Below, in pieces: positions 187-25,095 of a DNA stretch of 27,295 nucleotides. Both the position numbers and the translations under genes were made by a program. The stretch's first letter is position 1. Each line of letters begins with the position of its first letter. The notes below the pieces were generated by a model. The model was not told the DNA's origin. It worked only from the letters and a program-made list of their open reading frames with translations, and did not search any database. Origin of the DNA: a virus; the IMG/VR virus record IMGVR_UViG_3300047562_000437, positions 1-27,295 of that record; one strand, written 5' to 3'.

Positions 187-2928
187 TCAAGCGTTGCGGG
201 TGATGGTCCAGCCGCGAGCGACCAGAGCGTTGTAAGCGGTGACGGCTGCAGCTGTCCAGGTTGAAGCGCCTGCGTTGGTGCCTCCGCCAAGGCCGAGATT
301 GCCATTGGAAGTACCTGCAGACTCAATCGAAACGATGATGTTTTCGATGGATGCGGCGGTTAAGGCGCAATTAGTGAAAGCGTCGAGGTAGCGAGTGCAT
401 GTGGTGTTATCGAAGAGGTTGGCGGGGAAATTTGCAAGGGCGGTACAACCATTCCAAGTGTCGCGGAAGCCTGTGCTGATGCCTAAATCAGACGCAAGAC
501 CAGTTGCGGCGTCAAAGTTAAGAGCCGGGAATGCGGTAAGGCTGGTGCACCCAGACCAACTAGCTGAGAAGTTGGTTCCAGCCGATGTGTCGATTAGCGG
601 AAAGCTTGTTAAGTCGACACAGGTGGTCCAAGTAGCAACAAATTCCGTGCCGGAAGATGTGTCAATTAGTGGGAAACTTGCAAGATTTAAACATACATGC
701 CAAGCATAAGAGAAATTTGTGCCTGCCGAGGTGTCAATCAAAGGAAAGCTTGTTAGCCCTGTACAGCTATACCAAGCAGCGTAAAAGTATTCGCCTGCTC
801 CAGTATTGATCAGCGGAAAACTTGTGAGGCCAGTGCAGCCAAACCAACAATAACCAAAGTTGATGCCCGCTGAAGTATTGATCAGCGGAAAACTTGTGAG
901 GCCAGAGCAGGCAATCCAAGCAGCGTAGAAATTTGTGCCCGCTGAAGTATTGATTAACGGAAAACTTGTCAACCCAGAGCAACCGGACCAAGTATTAGAA
1001 AAGTTATCGCTGCTTGCAGTGTTGAGCAGCGGGAAGCTTGTCAAGCCTGAGCATCCATTCCAAGCGGAAGCAAAGCTCGTGCCTGATGAAGTATCAATCA
1101 AAGGAAAGCTTGTTAGCCCTGAGCAGCCATTCCAGGCTGCACTAAAATCAGTTACGTTTTGCGGCTGGCCACCTGCAGCCGTAAACGCTGTCATGCTGCT
1201 GCAGTTAAGCCATGTGAATCTAAAGGTCGTCGCAGCACTGAAATTAAATTGAGGGAAGATGCCGGTGATGCTGCTGCAGTTGTAGAACGCCTGAGACCAG
1301 TCTTGCACTGCGCTGGTATCCGGCAGATTCGTTGTTCTTGCAACGCTGGAGAAATCCATCTTGCTGCAGCCGTAGAAGGCGTTAGCCATCGTGCTCGGGC
1401 TGAGGAACACATCGTTGCCGTTGGCAGTTGTGCCCCACCGGACGATCTGCACCAAGTCAGGTGCGCTAGCGCTGTTGTTGAACTGCAGGTTCTCTAGCTT
1501 GCCTTCTACGAAGATCGAGTAGATGCCAGCGGCTGTGTATGTCTTCTGCAGGCCAGCAGCGCCAAGCTCAGCAGCAGCGTTTTCAAGGCCCGATTCAGTG
1601 CCATCACCCCATGTGATCACTAGATCATTGTCATTCGCGACGCTTTCAGCCGGCAGGGCGAATACCTTGTCTCCAGAGGCGCTAGCCCCCTGAGTGTTGA
1701 TGATGATCGATAGCGAGCCAGGGGGGCCAGTAGGCACGAAGGTGTCAGCATTGATTGGATCGAGATCGCTGCGCACCAAGGCCTCGGCCACTTCAGGCGT
1801 CAGCTCGCCTTGCCACAGGTAGACGCTGTTGATGTAGCCCTTAAACGCCTTGGTCGGATCGACAGCATCGTGGCCGATGGATAGCTGGTTGAGGCCAGTT
1901 GGCACTGAGCTGCTTAGCGACGTGGCAAAGCGTGAAGTGTTGCTGCCGTACTGATAGTTTTGTGAGCCATACGTGATGATGTTGCGCTCGCGGTTGGTGG
2001 TTGGCACCGGCAGGGGTAGAGAGCTTTTGCTTGTACCGTCGTAGTTGGAGATCAGCGCCAGCGAGTTGTAAGTTGCCGCATTGGAAAAGAAGCCTAGATC
2101 GATCTTGTCGTTGCTGCTGTTCTTGAGGCTGAGCAGCGTGTCGTTTTGATTAGTGCTGATTGCGCGGGCGTCGATGTAAACGGAGCCGCTAGTTGGCAGG
2201 GGGGCTTCTACGGAGAGGAGATCGGCGGCGCGGGTTGAAGTTGCAGTAGTTGTATAGATGTAATTAGTGGCTGCGGGCTGGTTCTCGTATTGAAAGCCCC
2301 AAACATACAGGCTTGTTGCGGTCAATCCGCTTACATTGCTTTGTAAGACAACCGTTCCAACCCCATTGCCTGTGTTCGTTTGAATTGTTAAGGCTACTTT
2401 TTGCCACTCTCCCGTTAGCGTGAAATCGGCTGCCTTGTAGGCATAGGCACCGCCACCCGTGCCCTCGGTGTAGAGCCTGGCCCTCTGGCCTTGGTTACCT
2501 TTTGCCCAGCATGAAACGCTATAAACAAGACCGCCAGTTATGCCGATAGCTTTTACGATATATGAATTAGTGCTATCGTTTTTAAACGTAATTTGATCGG
2601 CTGTTGGCGTGCCATCAGGAGCATCAATCACATCGCTAGCCCATGACAACAGCTCGTTTTTATTCCATGTACCGTCGGCAATGTTTCGGCTGTGGGTTAT
2701 TATGTTTGTTGATTGCGGCTCCAAAAGGAGCCCGCGATATTCTCCTGTTTCATAATCGTATTGAAATCGCGGCTGGTTTGCGCTAGCGGCACGCAAAACG
2801 CCATCGCGATCTATATATGTACCGGCCGAATCCCTCGTGAACTTAAACCTCGGGTCAATACGCTGCGACGCCCTAGGGTCCAGCAGCACCTGGGGGCGAT
2901 TGTCGTAGAAAAGCTCTTTGATGGCCAT
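187..2928 (-). CDS. Tail fiber / receptor-binding protein with BspA-like 24-residue repeats
   Basis: This 913-residue protein probably forms a host-contacting fiber or adhesin. The N terminus (about 1-75) carries the pattern DPRFKFTRDSAGTYIDRDGV followed by GLLLEPQSTN, which I know from phage fiber N termini. Residues about 80-240 look like a carbohydrate-binding beta-sandwich and about 245-385 like a LamG/concanavalin-type domain (GSVYIDARAIS, then GYINSVYLWQGELTPE). A PKD-like segment follows at about 405-478 (ITWGDGTESG, then YTAAGIYSIFVEG). From about 515 to 860 there is a BspA-type leucine-rich solenoid, with tryptophans exactly 24 residues apart from W599 to W791 and a core of CSGLTSFPLI. 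It starts 9 bases after the beta-helix fiber gene. The exact receptor is unknown. Confidence 0.8.
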   Translation of the reverse strand: MAIKELFYDNRPQVLLDPRASQRIDPRFKFTRDSAGTYIDRDGVLRAASANQPRFQYDYETGEYRGLLLEPQSTNIITHSRNIADGTWNKNELLSWASDVIDAPDGTPTADQITFKNDSTNSYIVKAIGITGGLVYSVSCWAKGNQGQRARLYTEGTGGGAYAYKAADFTLTGEWQKVALTIQTNTGNGVGTVVLQSNVSGLTATSLYVWGFQYENQPAATNYIYTTTATSTRAADLLSVEAPLPTSGSVYIDARAISTNQNDTLLSLKNSSNDKIDLGFFSNAATYNSLALISNYDGTSKSSLPLPVPTTNRERNIITYGSQNYQYGSNTSRFATSLSSSVPTGLNQLSIGHDAVDPTKAFKGYINSVYLWQGELTPEVAEALVRSDLDPINADTFVPTGPPGSLSIIINTQGASASGDKVFALPAESVANDNDLVITWGDGTESGLENAAAELGAAGLQKTYTAAGIYSIFVEGKLENLQFNNSASAPDLVQIVRWGTTANGNDVFLSPSTMANAFYGCSKMDFSSVARTTNLPDTSAVQDWSQAFYNCSSITGIFPQFNFSAATTFRFTWLNCSSMTAFTAAGGQPQNVTDFSAAWNGCSGLTSFPLIDTSSGTSFASAWNGCSGLTSFPLLNTASSDNFSNTWSGCSGLTSFPLINTSAGTNFYAAWIACSGLTSFPLINTSAGINFGYCWFGCTGLTSFPLINTGAGEYFYAAWYSCTGLTSFPLIDTSAGTNFSYAWHVCLNLASFPLIDTSSGTEFVATWTTCVDLTSFPLIDTSAGTNFSASWSGCTSLTAFPALNFDAATGLASDLGISTGFRDTWNGCTALANFPANLFDNTTCTRYLDAFTNCALTAASIENIIVSIESAGTSNGNLGLGGGTNAGASTWTAAAVTAYNALVARGWTITRNA
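559..1134 (-). repeat. Eight 72-bp in-frame tandem repeats in the fiber gene
   Basis: These are eight back-to-back units of 72 bases, coding for residues 599-790, with no change in spacing from unit to unit. Each codes for W-x-x-C-x-x-L-x-S-F-P-L-[IL]-[DN]-T-[AS]-[AS] and a variable tail. At DNA level neighbouring units are very close: bases 802-833 and 874-905 are identical over 32 bases at an offset of exactly 72, and 865-882 and 937-954 are identical over 18. More degenerate units flank the array on both sides, one with an insertion after residue 805. The near-identity suggests recent duplication or gene conversion. Confidence 0.9.
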
Positions 2929-2937
2929 GGCGAGGGA

Positions 2938-5900
2938 TCAGGCGGTGATGGTGGACTTGATAAGCACGAAGTTGAGAATCACCGCCTCAGACAGTGATCC
3001 AGCGGTGAGGTTTCGCAGAACGATTTTCACCGAACCGCTTGCGATGTCCAGGGTGCTGACGGAATAAGCGCCTGCTGTGGCGCCGGACTTAATGCTGACA
3101 GCGACAACATCCTGCGGGGCAATCTGGCTATTGGTCAGCGTAAACGCAACGGCTGTATCCGCAGCCAATGCCGCGCCGTTCATCGTGATCTGGCCGCAAG
3201 GCGTATTTAGCGTCACGCCCGTGGCCTTGTCAGTCAGCTGCGTGACGCTGCCGCCGCCCTGGGCATACCCGCACCATTCATCGACAAAAGCCAGCCGGCC
3301 CAGCATCCCTGCGACCGGCACCTCATCGGCATCAGTGCCAGTCTCAAAGCTGAAGTCCTTAGCGCTCAGCAGCGAGTTGTACTCTCGCCAATAGTTCAGG
3401 CCAAGATTGGTGATGGCCTTCGGCTGGTTGTTGTCCAGGATCGCGGCATCAGTCAAAGGCACCGAAGTGCCTTCAATGTCGGTAAGCGTTGCCAGCGAGA
3501 CCGGGCCAAGCGGCGACTCAGCAGATGACAGGTTGGCGCTCAGCGTGAAATTCGCCTGACCTGTGATCGTGATGTCGTTAAAGAAGCTCTCACCCTGTGC
3601 CGAAATGCCATTGGGGAACTCGGTGACAGGATCCTCATCCACGTTCGCCAGCGCAGTCAGGCTCTGGGTCTGGCCGGTGCTCAGATCCTCGATGCCGTTG
3701 CTCTTGACGATGTAGCCCTCTTCGTTGAAGCCAGAGGGATAGACGCGGCCGCCGAGCTCGTTGGTGAAGTAGTAGGTGAACTTATTGAGCGAGGTCAGCG
3801 TCTGCTGCACCGCTGGGAAGCCCTTGGTGTAGTTGAGCGTGCCAGCCCACTCAAAAGCATGAGCAAACAAGCGCAGCACTGAAGGCCGGCGGAATTCAGC
3901 AGCCCAGCAATTCCGCGTAGTGGCAAGCCCACCGGATGGTGCTGTTGGGAATTGCGTGGTGTTGTTCACATCACGCCTGCGATCAGCCTCAGCGCGGGGC
4001 TGTAGCGCTGCATGAGATGCAGCTTCACTGAATCCCAGGAAACGCAGCAGGGAGTAAGCCCCCTGGTAGTCGTTGCTGCTGCGGTACTGAGCTTGAATCG
4101 ATGCCTCAACTACGTTTGGCGAAGCCGTGGTCCACAGCGTGCTGAAATTGAATCCAAGCGTTGTGCTGGCCTGCTGGTTTGCTGTGTCGTTGTCGAGCAC
4201 CAGGCTGTAGCTCTGGTTGTCCAGCTTTTCGTCGGCCTGGTGGGCGCTGGGCATGTGGACATAGCTCTCTTGCCAGTCATCAGCAGCAGGGCCACCGCTG
4301 GCGGCTGTTGTCAGATCACGCAGCGCGGTGAAGTGCTTGCCGTTGTATTTGACCGTCGTGCCAGCTCTGTAGAAGGTGCTGTTCGCGTAGGTGATGTCGG
4401 GGTTGCTGCGGCGCAGCTGCACCTCCTGGGTCTTGTAGGTACCACCAAGAGCAAACTCCGGGTAGGTGGTGGTAGAGAAGTCCACCGCCGATACCGTCGT
4501 CACGATCAGCGGGTCGCTTGTGGGCAAGGTGCCATTCACGAACGGATCCACATCCCCGAACAGTGCTGCCGGGGTGGGGTCCAGTTGCAAGACGTATTCA
4601 CGCTGCACCAAGCGGGTCGGCGCCTCAGTGGCGAACATGCCAATCGCCAGACGCCGCTCTGATGCTGTGCGGTTGTCGATCAAACGCCGCACGTAGACGC
4701 GGCGCCCGATTGCTCGGTTTGTGCTGCTGTTCTGCGGGATGCCAGGGCTGACGCCGGTCTCATCCTGCAGAACGTCTTTAATGAAGATCCGATCTGCGTC
4801 GCTCGTGCTCCAGGCATTGGCAGCCAGTCGAGCTCTCCAGTCGGTGCCATTGGGGTTCTCGACCCAGATGTAGCTGTCCTCACGCAGGGTGTAGCCAAGA
4901 TCAGCCAAGATCTCTGGCACTGTGGTTGAGCCATCAGCTGCCACCAGCGCTTCGCTGAGATCGAAGCGGAACTGGCCGTCTGCATAGCTGCCGATAGTGC
5001 CCAAGAAGAACTTCTGGATGTTGCCGGTCTTCTGGCTGACATTCAGCGGGGTCTTGATGTAGCCAATCCGCCACTCCTTATCAAGGTCAAAAGCTTTGGC
5101 CTTGTAGCCGGTTGCGATCGCAACGCAGCCGCCAAACGAACTGTTGCTGTTGGTGATCGAGACCTCGCCACCGCTCTCAGTGGCGTGGTGAACGCCCTGG
5201 CCAATGGCGAAGATCGAGACTTCTTGGATGAAAGCGTTGTTGATCGCCCGGATGTGATAGCTACGCCGCGTGGGCTTCATCCGAACATTGTTCGGGTCGC
5301 TGCTGATGTATGTGGCGTAGCTCGGCATCTGAACCCAAGCGCTGCCGTTGTACAGCTCCCAACTGGACATGTCCTTTTGCAGGGACACGCCTGTGTAGTT
5401 AGCCGTCACCATCGAGCGCAGGCCTTCGACCTTGGCGCCATCGGCATGGATGCCACCCATGCCGTATTCAGAACGCACCGAACAGTTGAAGATGTAGGGC
5501 GAAGCTGAAGACGTGGTATCCCAGTCCTGGTCTGGGGTGTCGTCGATCGGGCCAACGATCTGGTACTCGGTGGGCCTTGTGACTGTCAGAGCGTTGCTCA
5601 GGTTGGCCGGGCTGCCCACATAGGTGCGCACCTTTGTGTAGAAGGCATCCAGCTCAGCCTTGCTGGCGAAGCCAAATCCAGACAGCAGGTGATGGCTGGT
5701 TGTGCTGTTGATCTTGTCGAAGAACGTGAAGCCGAAGAAGTAGCCGGTGCCAGTGATCTTGAAGATCTCGCTGCGGTTGCTGCGGTCTGCCAGCTCATCG
5801 GCAGGAGTTGGCACATACGTTGGGCGGAACGTGCATTTGCGCAGATCAGGGCCGCAGAGCGAGCAACCACGGGGCAGAAGGATGCCGCCGTTGGTTGGGT

Positions 5901-6444
5901 TGAATTTGATCAGGTCTTCTGGCGTCGGCTCATACCCGTCCACCCAAGTGACTGGGGTGCCAGAGCCAGGGTCGTTGTAGACCGTGTGAACACCAGGCGC
6001 CAGGATGATCGACACGCAATCCAGGTGCGCCTTTGGATCGGTGATCGAATACCAGTTCTTGCTGGTGATGATCGCGGCCTCAATGACCGCACGGTTAATC
6101 GTCTTGAACGGGCGCTGTGGGCTGAAACCGCAAGTGAGGCGCTGCTTGTCTAGGCGCTTGAGCTTGGCTTCGATGATCTCCTCATCAGTGCTGCCGCCGG
6201 GCGCTTCGTATGTGTTGTAGGAACCTGCCGCGAAGGTGTCCTGTCCGATGTATGGGTTGACGTACAGCGTGAACGGCGCCGTCAACGGGTCGATCTGTTG
6301 ACTACTGCCGGCGGCCACGTTGGCTGTGCCAGCCACCTGACGCATCAGGTCATTGAGCGCGGCGATCTGAGCCCTGAACTCTGCCTGCGTGGCATTGATG
6401 TTGTCTAGGGCGCCAGCAGCGCCAGCAAGCTCAAGGGAGGCCAC
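2938..6444 (-). CDS. Large tail fiber/spike protein with beta-helix (pectate-lyase-like) fold
   Basis: This is a 1168-residue structural protein, probably a trimeric fiber or spike at the tail tip. The start is GTG at 6442-6444; an in-frame stop lies only 9 bases upstream, so no longer start exists, and I see no Shine-Dalgarno. Residues about 10-40 are helical (NATQAEFRAQIAALNDLMRQ), likely a trimerising coiled coil. From about 58 there is NPYIGQDTFAAG and then SPQRPFKTINRAVIEAA, the entry to a right-handed beta-helix running to about 430 with a conspicuous cysteine cluster (GCSLCGPDLRKC). The rest is beta-rich, with no protease or lyase site that I can identify. The PFKTINRA-type entry resembles large structural proteins of cyanophages. 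It lies between tube-like proteins and the repeat fiber. Confidence 0.78.
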   Translation of the reverse strand: MASLELAGAAGALDNINATQAEFRAQIAALNDLMRQVAGTANVAAGSSQQIDPLTAPFTLYVNPYIGQDTFAAGSYNTYEAPGGSTDEEIIEAKLKRLDKQRLTCGFSPQRPFKTINRAVIEAAIITSKNWYSITDPKAHLDCVSIILAPGVHTVYNDPGSGTPVTWVDGYEPTPEDLIKFNPTNGGILLPRGCSLCGPDLRKCTFRPTYVPTPADELADRSNRSEIFKITGTGYFFGFTFFDKINSTTSHHLLSGFGFASKAELDAFYTKVRTYVGSPANLSNALTVTRPTEYQIVGPIDDTPDQDWDTTSSASPYIFNCSVRSEYGMGGIHADGAKVEGLRSMVTANYTGVSLQKDMSSWELYNGSAWVQMPSYATYISSDPNNVRMKPTRRSYHIRAINNAFIQEVSIFAIGQGVHHATESGGEVSITNSNSSFGGCVAIATGYKAKAFDLDKEWRIGYIKTPLNVSQKTGNIQKFFLGTIGSYADGQFRFDLSEALVAADGSTTVPEILADLGYTLREDSYIWVENPNGTDWRARLAANAWSTSDADRIFIKDVLQDETGVSPGIPQNSSTNRAIGRRVYVRRLIDNRTASERRLAIGMFATEAPTRLVQREYVLQLDPTPAALFGDVDPFVNGTLPTSDPLIVTTVSAVDFSTTTYPEFALGGTYKTQEVQLRRSNPDITYANSTFYRAGTTVKYNGKHFTALRDLTTAASGGPAADDWQESYVHMPSAHQADEKLDNQSYSLVLDNDTANQQASTTLGFNFSTLWTTASPNVVEASIQAQYRSSNDYQGAYSLLRFLGFSEAASHAALQPRAEADRRRDVNNTTQFPTAPSGGLATTRNCWAAEFRRPSVLRLFAHAFEWAGTLNYTKGFPAVQQTLTSLNKFTYYFTNELGGRVYPSGFNEEGYIVKSNGIEDLSTGQTQSLTALANVDEDPVTEFPNGISAQGESFFNDITITGQANFTLSANLSSAESPLGPVSLATLTDIEGTSVPLTDAAILDNNQPKAITNLGLNYWREYNSLLSAKDFSFETGTDADEVPVAGMLGRLAFVDEWCGYAQGGGSVTQLTDKATGVTLNTPCGQITMNGAALAADTAVAFTLTNSQIAPQDVVAVSIKSGATAGAYSVSTLDIASGSVKIVLRNLTAGSLSEAVILNFVLIKSTITA

Positions 6445-24587: not shown

Positions 24588-25095
24588 CAGACGACTCCGA
24601 GATAGTGCGACAGATCACGCGGATCTCTTCAGTGAGGATCGTGTGGCATTGCCTGATGTCACTGGTGCCAGCCACCTGGGCAGCCAGGCGATCAGGCAGC
24701 GTCATCAGCGCATCACGAGCGCGGCGTGCTTCGTTGAAGGCCGCGGCCTTGATCTCAGCAGCAGATACCAGCTCGCCCTTGAGCTTCATCACCTCCAAGC
24801 GCTCGCGCTCGGCTTGGTAGACGACCTTGGCTCGCTGGGCTTCGGCCATGGTTGGGCCGGCCTTCATCAACTTCTCGGTTGCAATCTCCTTTGGCGTGTC
24901 TGTGGTGACGCGGCTCTGAGTGTTTGAAGCCCATTGCAGATCGGCGAGCGTAGGGTCGATGAACCACTTGCCGTCGATCTTCTGAACCGCAGGCTCAGTG
25001 AGCCGGCCGGCCTGGATCGCCTGCAGGACAGCGACGTGACTGGTGCCGCGCAGGCCCTTCGCTTTGCGATGCGCGGCGTAGGCCTGCAGATTCAT
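24580..25095 (-). CDS. Small terminase subunit, Nu1-like
   Basis: The product is 171 residues from ATG 25093-25095, which forms an ATGA overlap with the dioxygenase stop. A longer frame reaching 25197 exists but would overlap that gene by over 100 bases, so I prefer this start. Residues about 1-55 look like the Nu1-type winged helix that recognises packaging DNA: GLRGTSHVAVLQAIQAGRL and IDGKWFIDPTLADLQWASNT. A long helical region follows (AEAQRAKVVYQAERERLEVM), with KLKGELVSAAEIKAAAFNEA typical of Nu1 relatives, and a C-terminal helix that would bind the large subunit. It lies immediately before the large terminase, as usual. Confidence 0.82.
   Translation of the reverse strand: MNLQAYAAHRKAKGLRGTSHVAVLQAIQAGRLTEPAVQKIDGKWFIDPTLADLQWASNTQSRVTTDTPKEIATEKLMKAGPTMAEAQRAKVVYQAERERLEVMKLKGELVSAAEIKAAAFNEARRARDALMTLPDRLAAQVAGTSDIRQCHTILTEEIRVICRTISESSDA

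What the first reader, a model, noticed from the sequence alone, without database searches (positions are those of the whole stretch)
559..1134. Exact 24-residue periodic repeats in the fiber, with near-identical DNA units
Nine tryptophans are spaced exactly 24 apart. Neighbouring units are identical over up to 32 bases at a 72-base offset, so the array can gain or lose units by recombination without breaking frame. That is a simple route to changing receptor reach or specificity. BspA-type repeats are known on bacterial surface proteins; their use on a tail fiber with a PKD-like stalk is less usual.
Basis: seen in the sequence. Interest (0 to 1): 0.65.

Follow-up and report, generated by a model that had tools for sequence, protein, structure and literature searches.

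The report
Repeat-bearing cyanophage fibre with turnover
A Synechococcus-phage-like virus carries a fibre protein whose far end is a coil of eight similar 24-residue units; in relatives the units are gained, lost and overwritten over evolutionary time, while a separate domain near the start of the same protein is swapped wholesale, so this is a two-part version of a known way to vary a surface protein.

Summary
Confirmed: window 559-1134 (minus strand) holds eight 24-residue units (nine Trp exactly 24 apart) in a 913-aa fibre gene. DNA units are 53-79% identical, with exact runs of 32 bp (72-bp offset) and 28 bp (360-bp offset), beyond synonymous-codon chance (0 of 400). The C-terminal half is a degenerate BspA/DUF285-type solenoid after a PKD-like segment. 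The window misses the Pfam cut-offs, but relatives pass them (L023, S-CBWM1 gp93), so the architecture is already known in phages. Terminase is 91% identical to Synechococcus siphovirus S-CBS3, which lacks both distal fibre genes. About 12 relatives show unit counts of 1-9 and concerted evolution: array synonymous sites look near-random where both flanks are conserved (10 of 10 close pairs). Equal counts (window and L009, both 8) hide lost positional correspondence. Fast, strain-level count change is not shown: the only near-identical pair that differs (L014/L016, 3 units) sits on a 125-bp exact repeat and could be assembler collapse. A receptor role is inferred, not shown.

The parts
187..2928 (-). 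Fibre gene, 913 aa, with the repeat array in its C-terminal half
   Evidence: PHROG matches phrog_5939 'tail protein' (8e-48, aa 12-383) and phrog_34853 (3e-53, repeat region)
559..1134 (-). Eight tandem 24-aa (72-bp) units, aa 599-790; invariant across the family: W1, C4, F10; near-invariant L7, P11, T15, F21; variable positions 2, 3, 20, 22, 23
   Evidence: AF2 pLDDT about 79-95 with one beta-bridge residue per unit at unit position 20
874..905 (-). First copy of the 32-base exact repeat (offset 72)
802..833 (-). Second copy of the 32-base exact repeat
1094..1121 (-). First copy of the 28-base exact repeat (offset 360, five units apart)
734..761 (-). Second copy of the 28-base exact repeat
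1135..1377 (-). Degenerate N-terminal cap units of the solenoid (aa 518-598), better conserved than the array
   Evidence: weak DUF285 match aa 513-603
190..558 (-). C-terminal cap: 34-residue unit at Trp791, last degenerate unit at Trp825 and a helix-strand-helix-strand end (aa 858-911)
1474..1719 (-). PKD-like segment (aa 404-485, motif ITWGDGTES...KTY..AGIYSIFVEG)
   Evidence: no Pfam PKD match in the window itself; aligns to S-CBWM1 gp93, which passes PF00801; low AF2 confidence here
2224..2727 (-). NF048003 'head spike fiber' domain (aa 68-235), carbohydrate-binding-like; the swapped module
   Evidence: NCBIfam 99.5 bits, cut-off 36; PF02018 CBM_4_9 sub-threshold; PDB 6tb9 GTA head spike 2e-13; 29-37% identity beside 86-92% downstream and 65-99% upstream in close pairs
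2938..6444 (-). Neighbouring tail fibre gene, 1168 aa, travelling with the repeat fibre
   Evidence: phrog_529 tail fiber 8e-103; 72-93% identical in all relatives tested

Best explanation
The gene encodes a distal fibre (adhesin) of an estuarine Synechococcus-type siphovirus. Its C-terminal half is a stack of 24-residue coils related to BspA/DUF285 leucine-rich repeats, carried on a PKD-like segment and closed by fixed caps. The array evolves by in-frame unit birth, death and overwriting (unequal recombination or gene conversion): shown by comparison. This keeps the scaffold residues homogeneous while residues at unit positions 2, 3, 20, 22 and 23 diversify: shown as variation, with suggestive selection. 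Those positions most likely form the contact surface for the host cell: inferred. A second variable part, the NF048003 domain near the N-terminus, is exchanged as a block: shown by comparison in close pairs, with chimeric assembly not excluded for any single contig. The two hotspots together would let the phage retune adsorption: inferred.
For: Unit counts 1-9 across relatives. 65% of units have their closest unit in their own array against 9% by label shuffling (max 22%); 8 of 8 in L014, 8 of 8 in L015, 9 of 9 in L025. In 10 of 10 close pairs the array has lower same-codon identity (mean 46%) than the upstream (68%) and downstream (66%) flanks of the same gene; distant-pair background is 37-40%. 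Window and L009 units keep no positional correspondence (0.615 on-diagonal, 0.601 off; p 0.14) although residues 240-560 are 82-95% identical. Exact intra-array runs exceed synonymous shuffles in window, L011, L012, L014, L015, L025 and L042, not in L009 or L017. In units duplicated recently, held-out variable positions have pN(variable)/pS(all) about 1.8 (bootstrap 0.97-3.0 or 1.13-3.0), with scaffold pN 0.025-0.039 against pS 0.16. Module swap. AF2 repeat domain pLDDT mostly 80-97. TerL 91% to S-CBS3.
Against: No binding or structural data. The selection test rests on six arrays and its interval touches 1. S-CBS1/S-CBS3, the nearest cultured phages by terminase, lack this gene, so the host link is indirect. 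The NF048003 family is named for a GTA head spike, so tail location rests on gene order and PHROG labels. L068 keeps only about one core unit in an intact frame, so a long array is not essential.
Confidence: 0.6

Rival explanations
1. The array is only a rigid spacer or scaffold whose unit number drifts neutrally; recognition sits in the swapped NF048003/CBM-like domain.
For: L015 and L024 are 98-99% identical, with no substitution in array or cap but a wholly different NF048003 domain (192 substitutions plus indels). That domain is the least conserved part in nearly every close pair. L068 has about one unit. Strong scaffold constraint.
Against: Non-synonymous excess at the variable positions in recent duplicates. 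NF048003 sits in the N-terminal third, where fibres usually attach (general knowledge), and the repeat domain is distal.
Confidence: 0.28
2. The array is a fast contingency locus: units are gained and lost within a population by slippage or recombination.
For: L014 (9 units) and L016 (6 units) are identical over 5000 bases upstream, the whole CDS and 1974 bases downstream, except for an exact 216-bp in-frame difference inside a 125-bp direct repeat.
Against: A 125-bp exact repeat is just what a short-read assembler with k at or below about 125 collapses, and nothing else differs. Other near-identical contigs keep counts: L017/L018 (99.96%), L015/L024, L012/L034, L009 in three contigs. The window's longest run is only 32 bp.
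Confidence: 0.12
3. The protein is a capsid (head) spike like the GTA Rcc01080 spike rather than a tail fibre.
For: NF048003 99.5 bits; PDB 6tb9 GTA head spike, 2e-13 over aa 28-244.
Against: Last gene of the tail module, directly after a phrog_529 tail fibre gene; PHROG calls the same N-terminal region 'tail protein' (phrog_5939, phrog_1419). The domain is a module also found on another phage's fibre-like protein (P12024S).
Confidence: 0.15
4. Hypervariation is produced by a diversity-generating retroelement.
For: Scattered hypervariable residues on a fixed scaffold.
Against: No reverse transcriptase (PF00078) in the window or eight related contigs, although three of the control genomes ring. 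The variation goes with synonymous turnover of whole units.
Confidence: 0.02

Closest known systems
PARCEL / DUF285 (PF03382) / TIGR02167 repeat surface proteins (Roske et al. 2010, PMC2996958)
   Same: Tandem repeats of about 25 residues in variable numbers, conserved hydrophobic scaffold with variable hydrophilic residues, surface-protein setting, horizontally spread
   Different: Unit is 24 residues with an invariant Trp; window below DUF285 cut-off and without TIGR02167 match; no dyad symmetry in the unit DNA; located on a phage fibre
Synechococcus phage S-CBWM1 gp93 and S-SKS1 SWZG_00142
   Same: PKD-like segment, W..CSSLTSFP units (25 and 24 aa) and the same C-terminal end (ENIL.....GGT.A...W); gp93 is annotated as a putative tail protein
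   Different: Short stand-alone proteins (336 and 353 aa), five to six units, no NF048003 domain
Nonlabens phage P12024S gene 10
   Same: NF048003 domain followed by W-type repeats and a similar C-terminal end in one protein
   Different: Few repeats without the Cys; no PKD-like segment found; Bacteroidota host
GTA head spike Rcc01080 (PDB 6tb9)
   Same: N-terminal domain homologous, aa 28-244
   Different: Capsid spike of a gene transfer agent; no match to the repeat array
Vibrio jumbo phage vB_VhaM_pir03 ORF200 and ORF287 (PMC7765460)
   Same: DUF285/BspA-type repeats annotated in a phage
   Different: Unrelated phage; no comparison made here beyond the paper's table

Membership tests
DUF285 (PF03382), BspA-type LRR | Pfam gathering score reached | tested here: not met
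   Window 12.8 bits, cut-off 25. Homologues reach it: L023 63.2 bits, S-CBWM1 gp93 26.7 bits. Six of ten relatives match at E<0.01. Relationship supported through intermediates, not by the window alone.
DUF285 (PF03382), BspA-type LRR | 24-25-residue tandem period with the (A)[FW]xxCxxLxxFP pattern | tested here: met
LRR_5 (PF13306), BspA/TpLRR | Pfam gathering score reached | tested here: not met
   No match in window; S-CBWM1 gp93 24.2 bits, cut-off 27.7
Leucine-rich repeat fold | Solenoid homologous to solved LRR structures | tested here: inconclusive
PARCEL / TIGR02167 | HMM match | tested here: not met
   No TIGR02167 match in window up to E=1; gp93 17.1 bits, cut-off 30
PARCEL / TIGR02167 | Dyad symmetry in repeat-coding DNA | tested here: not met
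   Inverted arms no longer than in shuffles (simple perfect-arm test, not the paper's motif method)
PARCEL / TIGR02167 | Variable number of tandem repeats in related ORFs | tested here: met
   1-9 units
PKD domain (PF00801/PF18911) | Pfam gathering score reached | tested here: not met
   No match in window; the homologue S-CBWM1 gp93 passes PF00801, 26.3 against 23.5
NF048003 phage head spike fiber domain | NCBIfam cut-off | tested here: met
   99.5 bits, cut-off 36
S-CBS1/S-CBS3-like cyanosiphovirus | Shared packaging/head genes | tested here: met
   TerL 91%/85%, portal 63-64%, head-tail joining 52-55%, phrog_290 tail protein 39-63%
S-CBS1/S-CBS3-like cyanosiphovirus | Shared distal tail/fibre genes | tested here: not met
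   No match of the two fibre genes at 187-6444 in S-CBS1 or S-CBS3
Tail fibre receptor-binding protein | Binds the host receptor | not testable with these tools
   inference from position and variation only

The most novel reading that the evidence does not exclude
A phage fibre with two independent diversification engines: a block-swapped carbohydrate-binding-like domain, and a leucine-rich-repeat array that gene conversion keeps uniform in its scaffold while exposed residues of each copy are driven apart by selection, a phage counterpart of repertoire-building LRR receptors.
Probability: 0.25. Interest if true: 0.7.

Novelty: new variant of a known kind. Interest (0 to 1): 0.45.

Why it matters
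It gives a concrete natural series (1 to 9 units on otherwise similar fibres) of estuarine cyanophage adhesins in which repeat number, variable residues and a swappable domain vary separately. That makes the question of which part of a repeat-bearing fibre sets host range directly testable, for an abundant aquatic host whose phage receptors are mostly unknown. It also warns that equal repeat counts do not mean a stable array, and that count differences between metagenome assemblies can be collapse artefacts.

Tried and rejected
Relatives in genome contigs: none confirmed. Diversity-generating retroelement: no RT. PARCEL-type palindromes: none above shuffles. L014/L016 as proof of strain-level count change: set aside, because everything compared outside the 125-bp exact repeat is identical. 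BLAST's initial 98-99.5% figure for that pair came from repeat mis-registration; the base-by-base comparison shows no differences. L024 as a broken fibre gene: its terminase is also split by frame changes, so indel error is likelier than a real pseudogene. Cultured phages holding the L015 version of the swapped domain: none.

Full report
Observation. The finding lies in the minus-strand ORF 187-2928 (913 aa). Nine tryptophans at aa 599-791 are exactly 24 apart and the eight full units fill 559-1134. TRF reports the array. Exact runs are 32 bp at offset 72 and 28 bp at offset 360. With the protein held fixed and synonymous codons redrawn from the gene, the longest run averages 14.2 and never reached 32 in 400 trials, so some DNA exchange between units is recent. 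Whole units are nevertheless only 53-79% identical in DNA.

Anatomy. NCBIfam NF048003 (99.5 bits, cut-off 36) covers aa 68-235, and aa 28-244 match the GTA head spike Rcc01080 (PDB 6tb9, 2e-13). A PKD-like segment follows at about aa 404-485, then degenerate cap units, eight regular units, a longer capping unit and a helix-strand-helix-strand end. AlphaFold2 gives low confidence to the PKD-like segment and mostly 80-97 to the solenoid, with one beta-bridge residue per unit at unit position 20. The window itself is below the DUF285, LRR_5 and PKD cut-offs. Its homologue L023 reaches DUF285 with 63 bits, and cultured phage S-CBWM1 gp93 passes both DUF285 and PKD. A profile of the family matches solved LRR proteins, a match that compositional similarity may inflate.

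Which phage. The window is a 27,295-base virus record. Its terminase is 91% identical to Synechococcus siphovirus S-CBS3 and 85% to S-CBS1; portal, head-tail joining and several tail proteins also match, but both distal fibre genes are absent from S-CBS1/3. The neighbouring tail fibre gene (2938-6444) accompanies the repeat fibre in all relatives tested, 72-93% identical, although L015's terminase is only 38% identical and six other contigs show none. The two-fibre cassette therefore seems to travel between phages with different packaging genes. Fragmentary contigs limit this inference.

Unit number. Scans of IMG/VR gave about a dozen independent relatives. Core unit counts: L068 about 1, L042 4, L011 7, L017 7, window 8, L009 8, L012 8, L013 8 (one of 29 aa), L015 8, L014 9 (one of 25 aa), L025 9. 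The raw script count for L012, L013 and L017 is one higher because it includes a 26-27-residue C-terminal cap unit; the numbers here leave that unit out. L023 has Phe-type units of similar period, about seven, counted by eye. All array length differences respect the frame.

Turnover without count change. In 10 of 10 close pairs the array has lower same-codon identity than either flank of the same gene (means 46 against 68 and 66%; background about 37-40%). The pairs share members, so they are not independent. Sixty-five percent of units have their nearest unit in their own array (label shuffle 9%, max 22%). The window and L009 both have eight units, yet the units show no positional correspondence (p 0.14). 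This is the signature of concerted evolution: unit duplication, loss or conversion.

Strain-level change. L014 and L016 are identical over 5000 bases upstream, through the coding sequence and over 1974 bases downstream, except for 216 bp lost within a 125-bp exact repeat. I treat this as unproven, because a short-read assembler would produce the same result by collapse; that the two records may come from reassemblies of related estuary samples is my recollection, not checked. Other near-identical contigs keep their counts, though some may be the same population sampled twice.

Where residues vary. Across 74 units, W1, C4 and F10 never vary; positions 2, 3, 20, 22 and 23 vary most. Choosing variable positions from four arrays and testing on recent duplicates in six others gave pN(variable)/pS(all) of about 1.8 (bootstrap 1.13-3.0 for four positions, 0.97-3.0 for five) against scaffold pN of 0.025-0.039 with pS about 0.16. 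This is suggestive of diversifying selection, no more.

Second hotspot. In the closest pairs the NF048003 domain is 29-37% identical, while the next 330 residues are 86-92% identical (88 for the frame-shifted L024) and the first 70 are 65-99% identical; L012 and L025 are an exception and share a domain type at 66%. L015 and L024 differ by 192 substitutions plus indels there but by none in the array and cap. Chimeric assembly cannot be excluded for a single contig, but the pattern recurs in independent pairs.

Known context. Variable-number DUF285/TIGR02167 arrays with variable hydrophilic residues are described as PARCELs in bacteria and eukaryotic microbes (PMC2996958). The window lacks the TIGR02167 match and dyad symmetry. 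Phage cases exist: S-CBWM1, S-SKS1, P12024S and Vibrio phage pir03 (PMC7765460). I therefore rate it a new variant of a known kind.

Verdict.

Noticed in passing
window 2224-2727; L015/L024 aa 81-245: The NF048003 'spike fibre' domain of the same gene seems replaced as a block between near-identical phages, more sharply than the array changes.
   Followed up: partly
window 187-6444: The two distal fibre genes are absent from S-CBS1/S-CBS3 although terminase is 85-91% identical, and occur beside a terminase only 38% identical in L015: an exchanged fibre cassette.
   Followed up: partly
L024 (contig IMGVR_UViG_3300046170_000364): Fibre and terminase frames are both broken by indels, suggesting an indel-prone assembly rather than pseudogenes.
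   Followed up: partly
L068 5403-7676: A relative with an intact frame but only about one core unit: a natural near-minimum of the array.
   Followed up: no
window 25092-25853: Gene near the terminase matches phrog_6059, labelled queuine tRNA-ribosyltransferase (2e-67); the label looks doubtful and was not examined.
   Followed up: no
L023 5001-7754: Relative with classical Phe-type DUF285 units in place of Trp-type units behind the same N-terminal parts; a possible intermediate between the two repeat types.
   Followed up: partly
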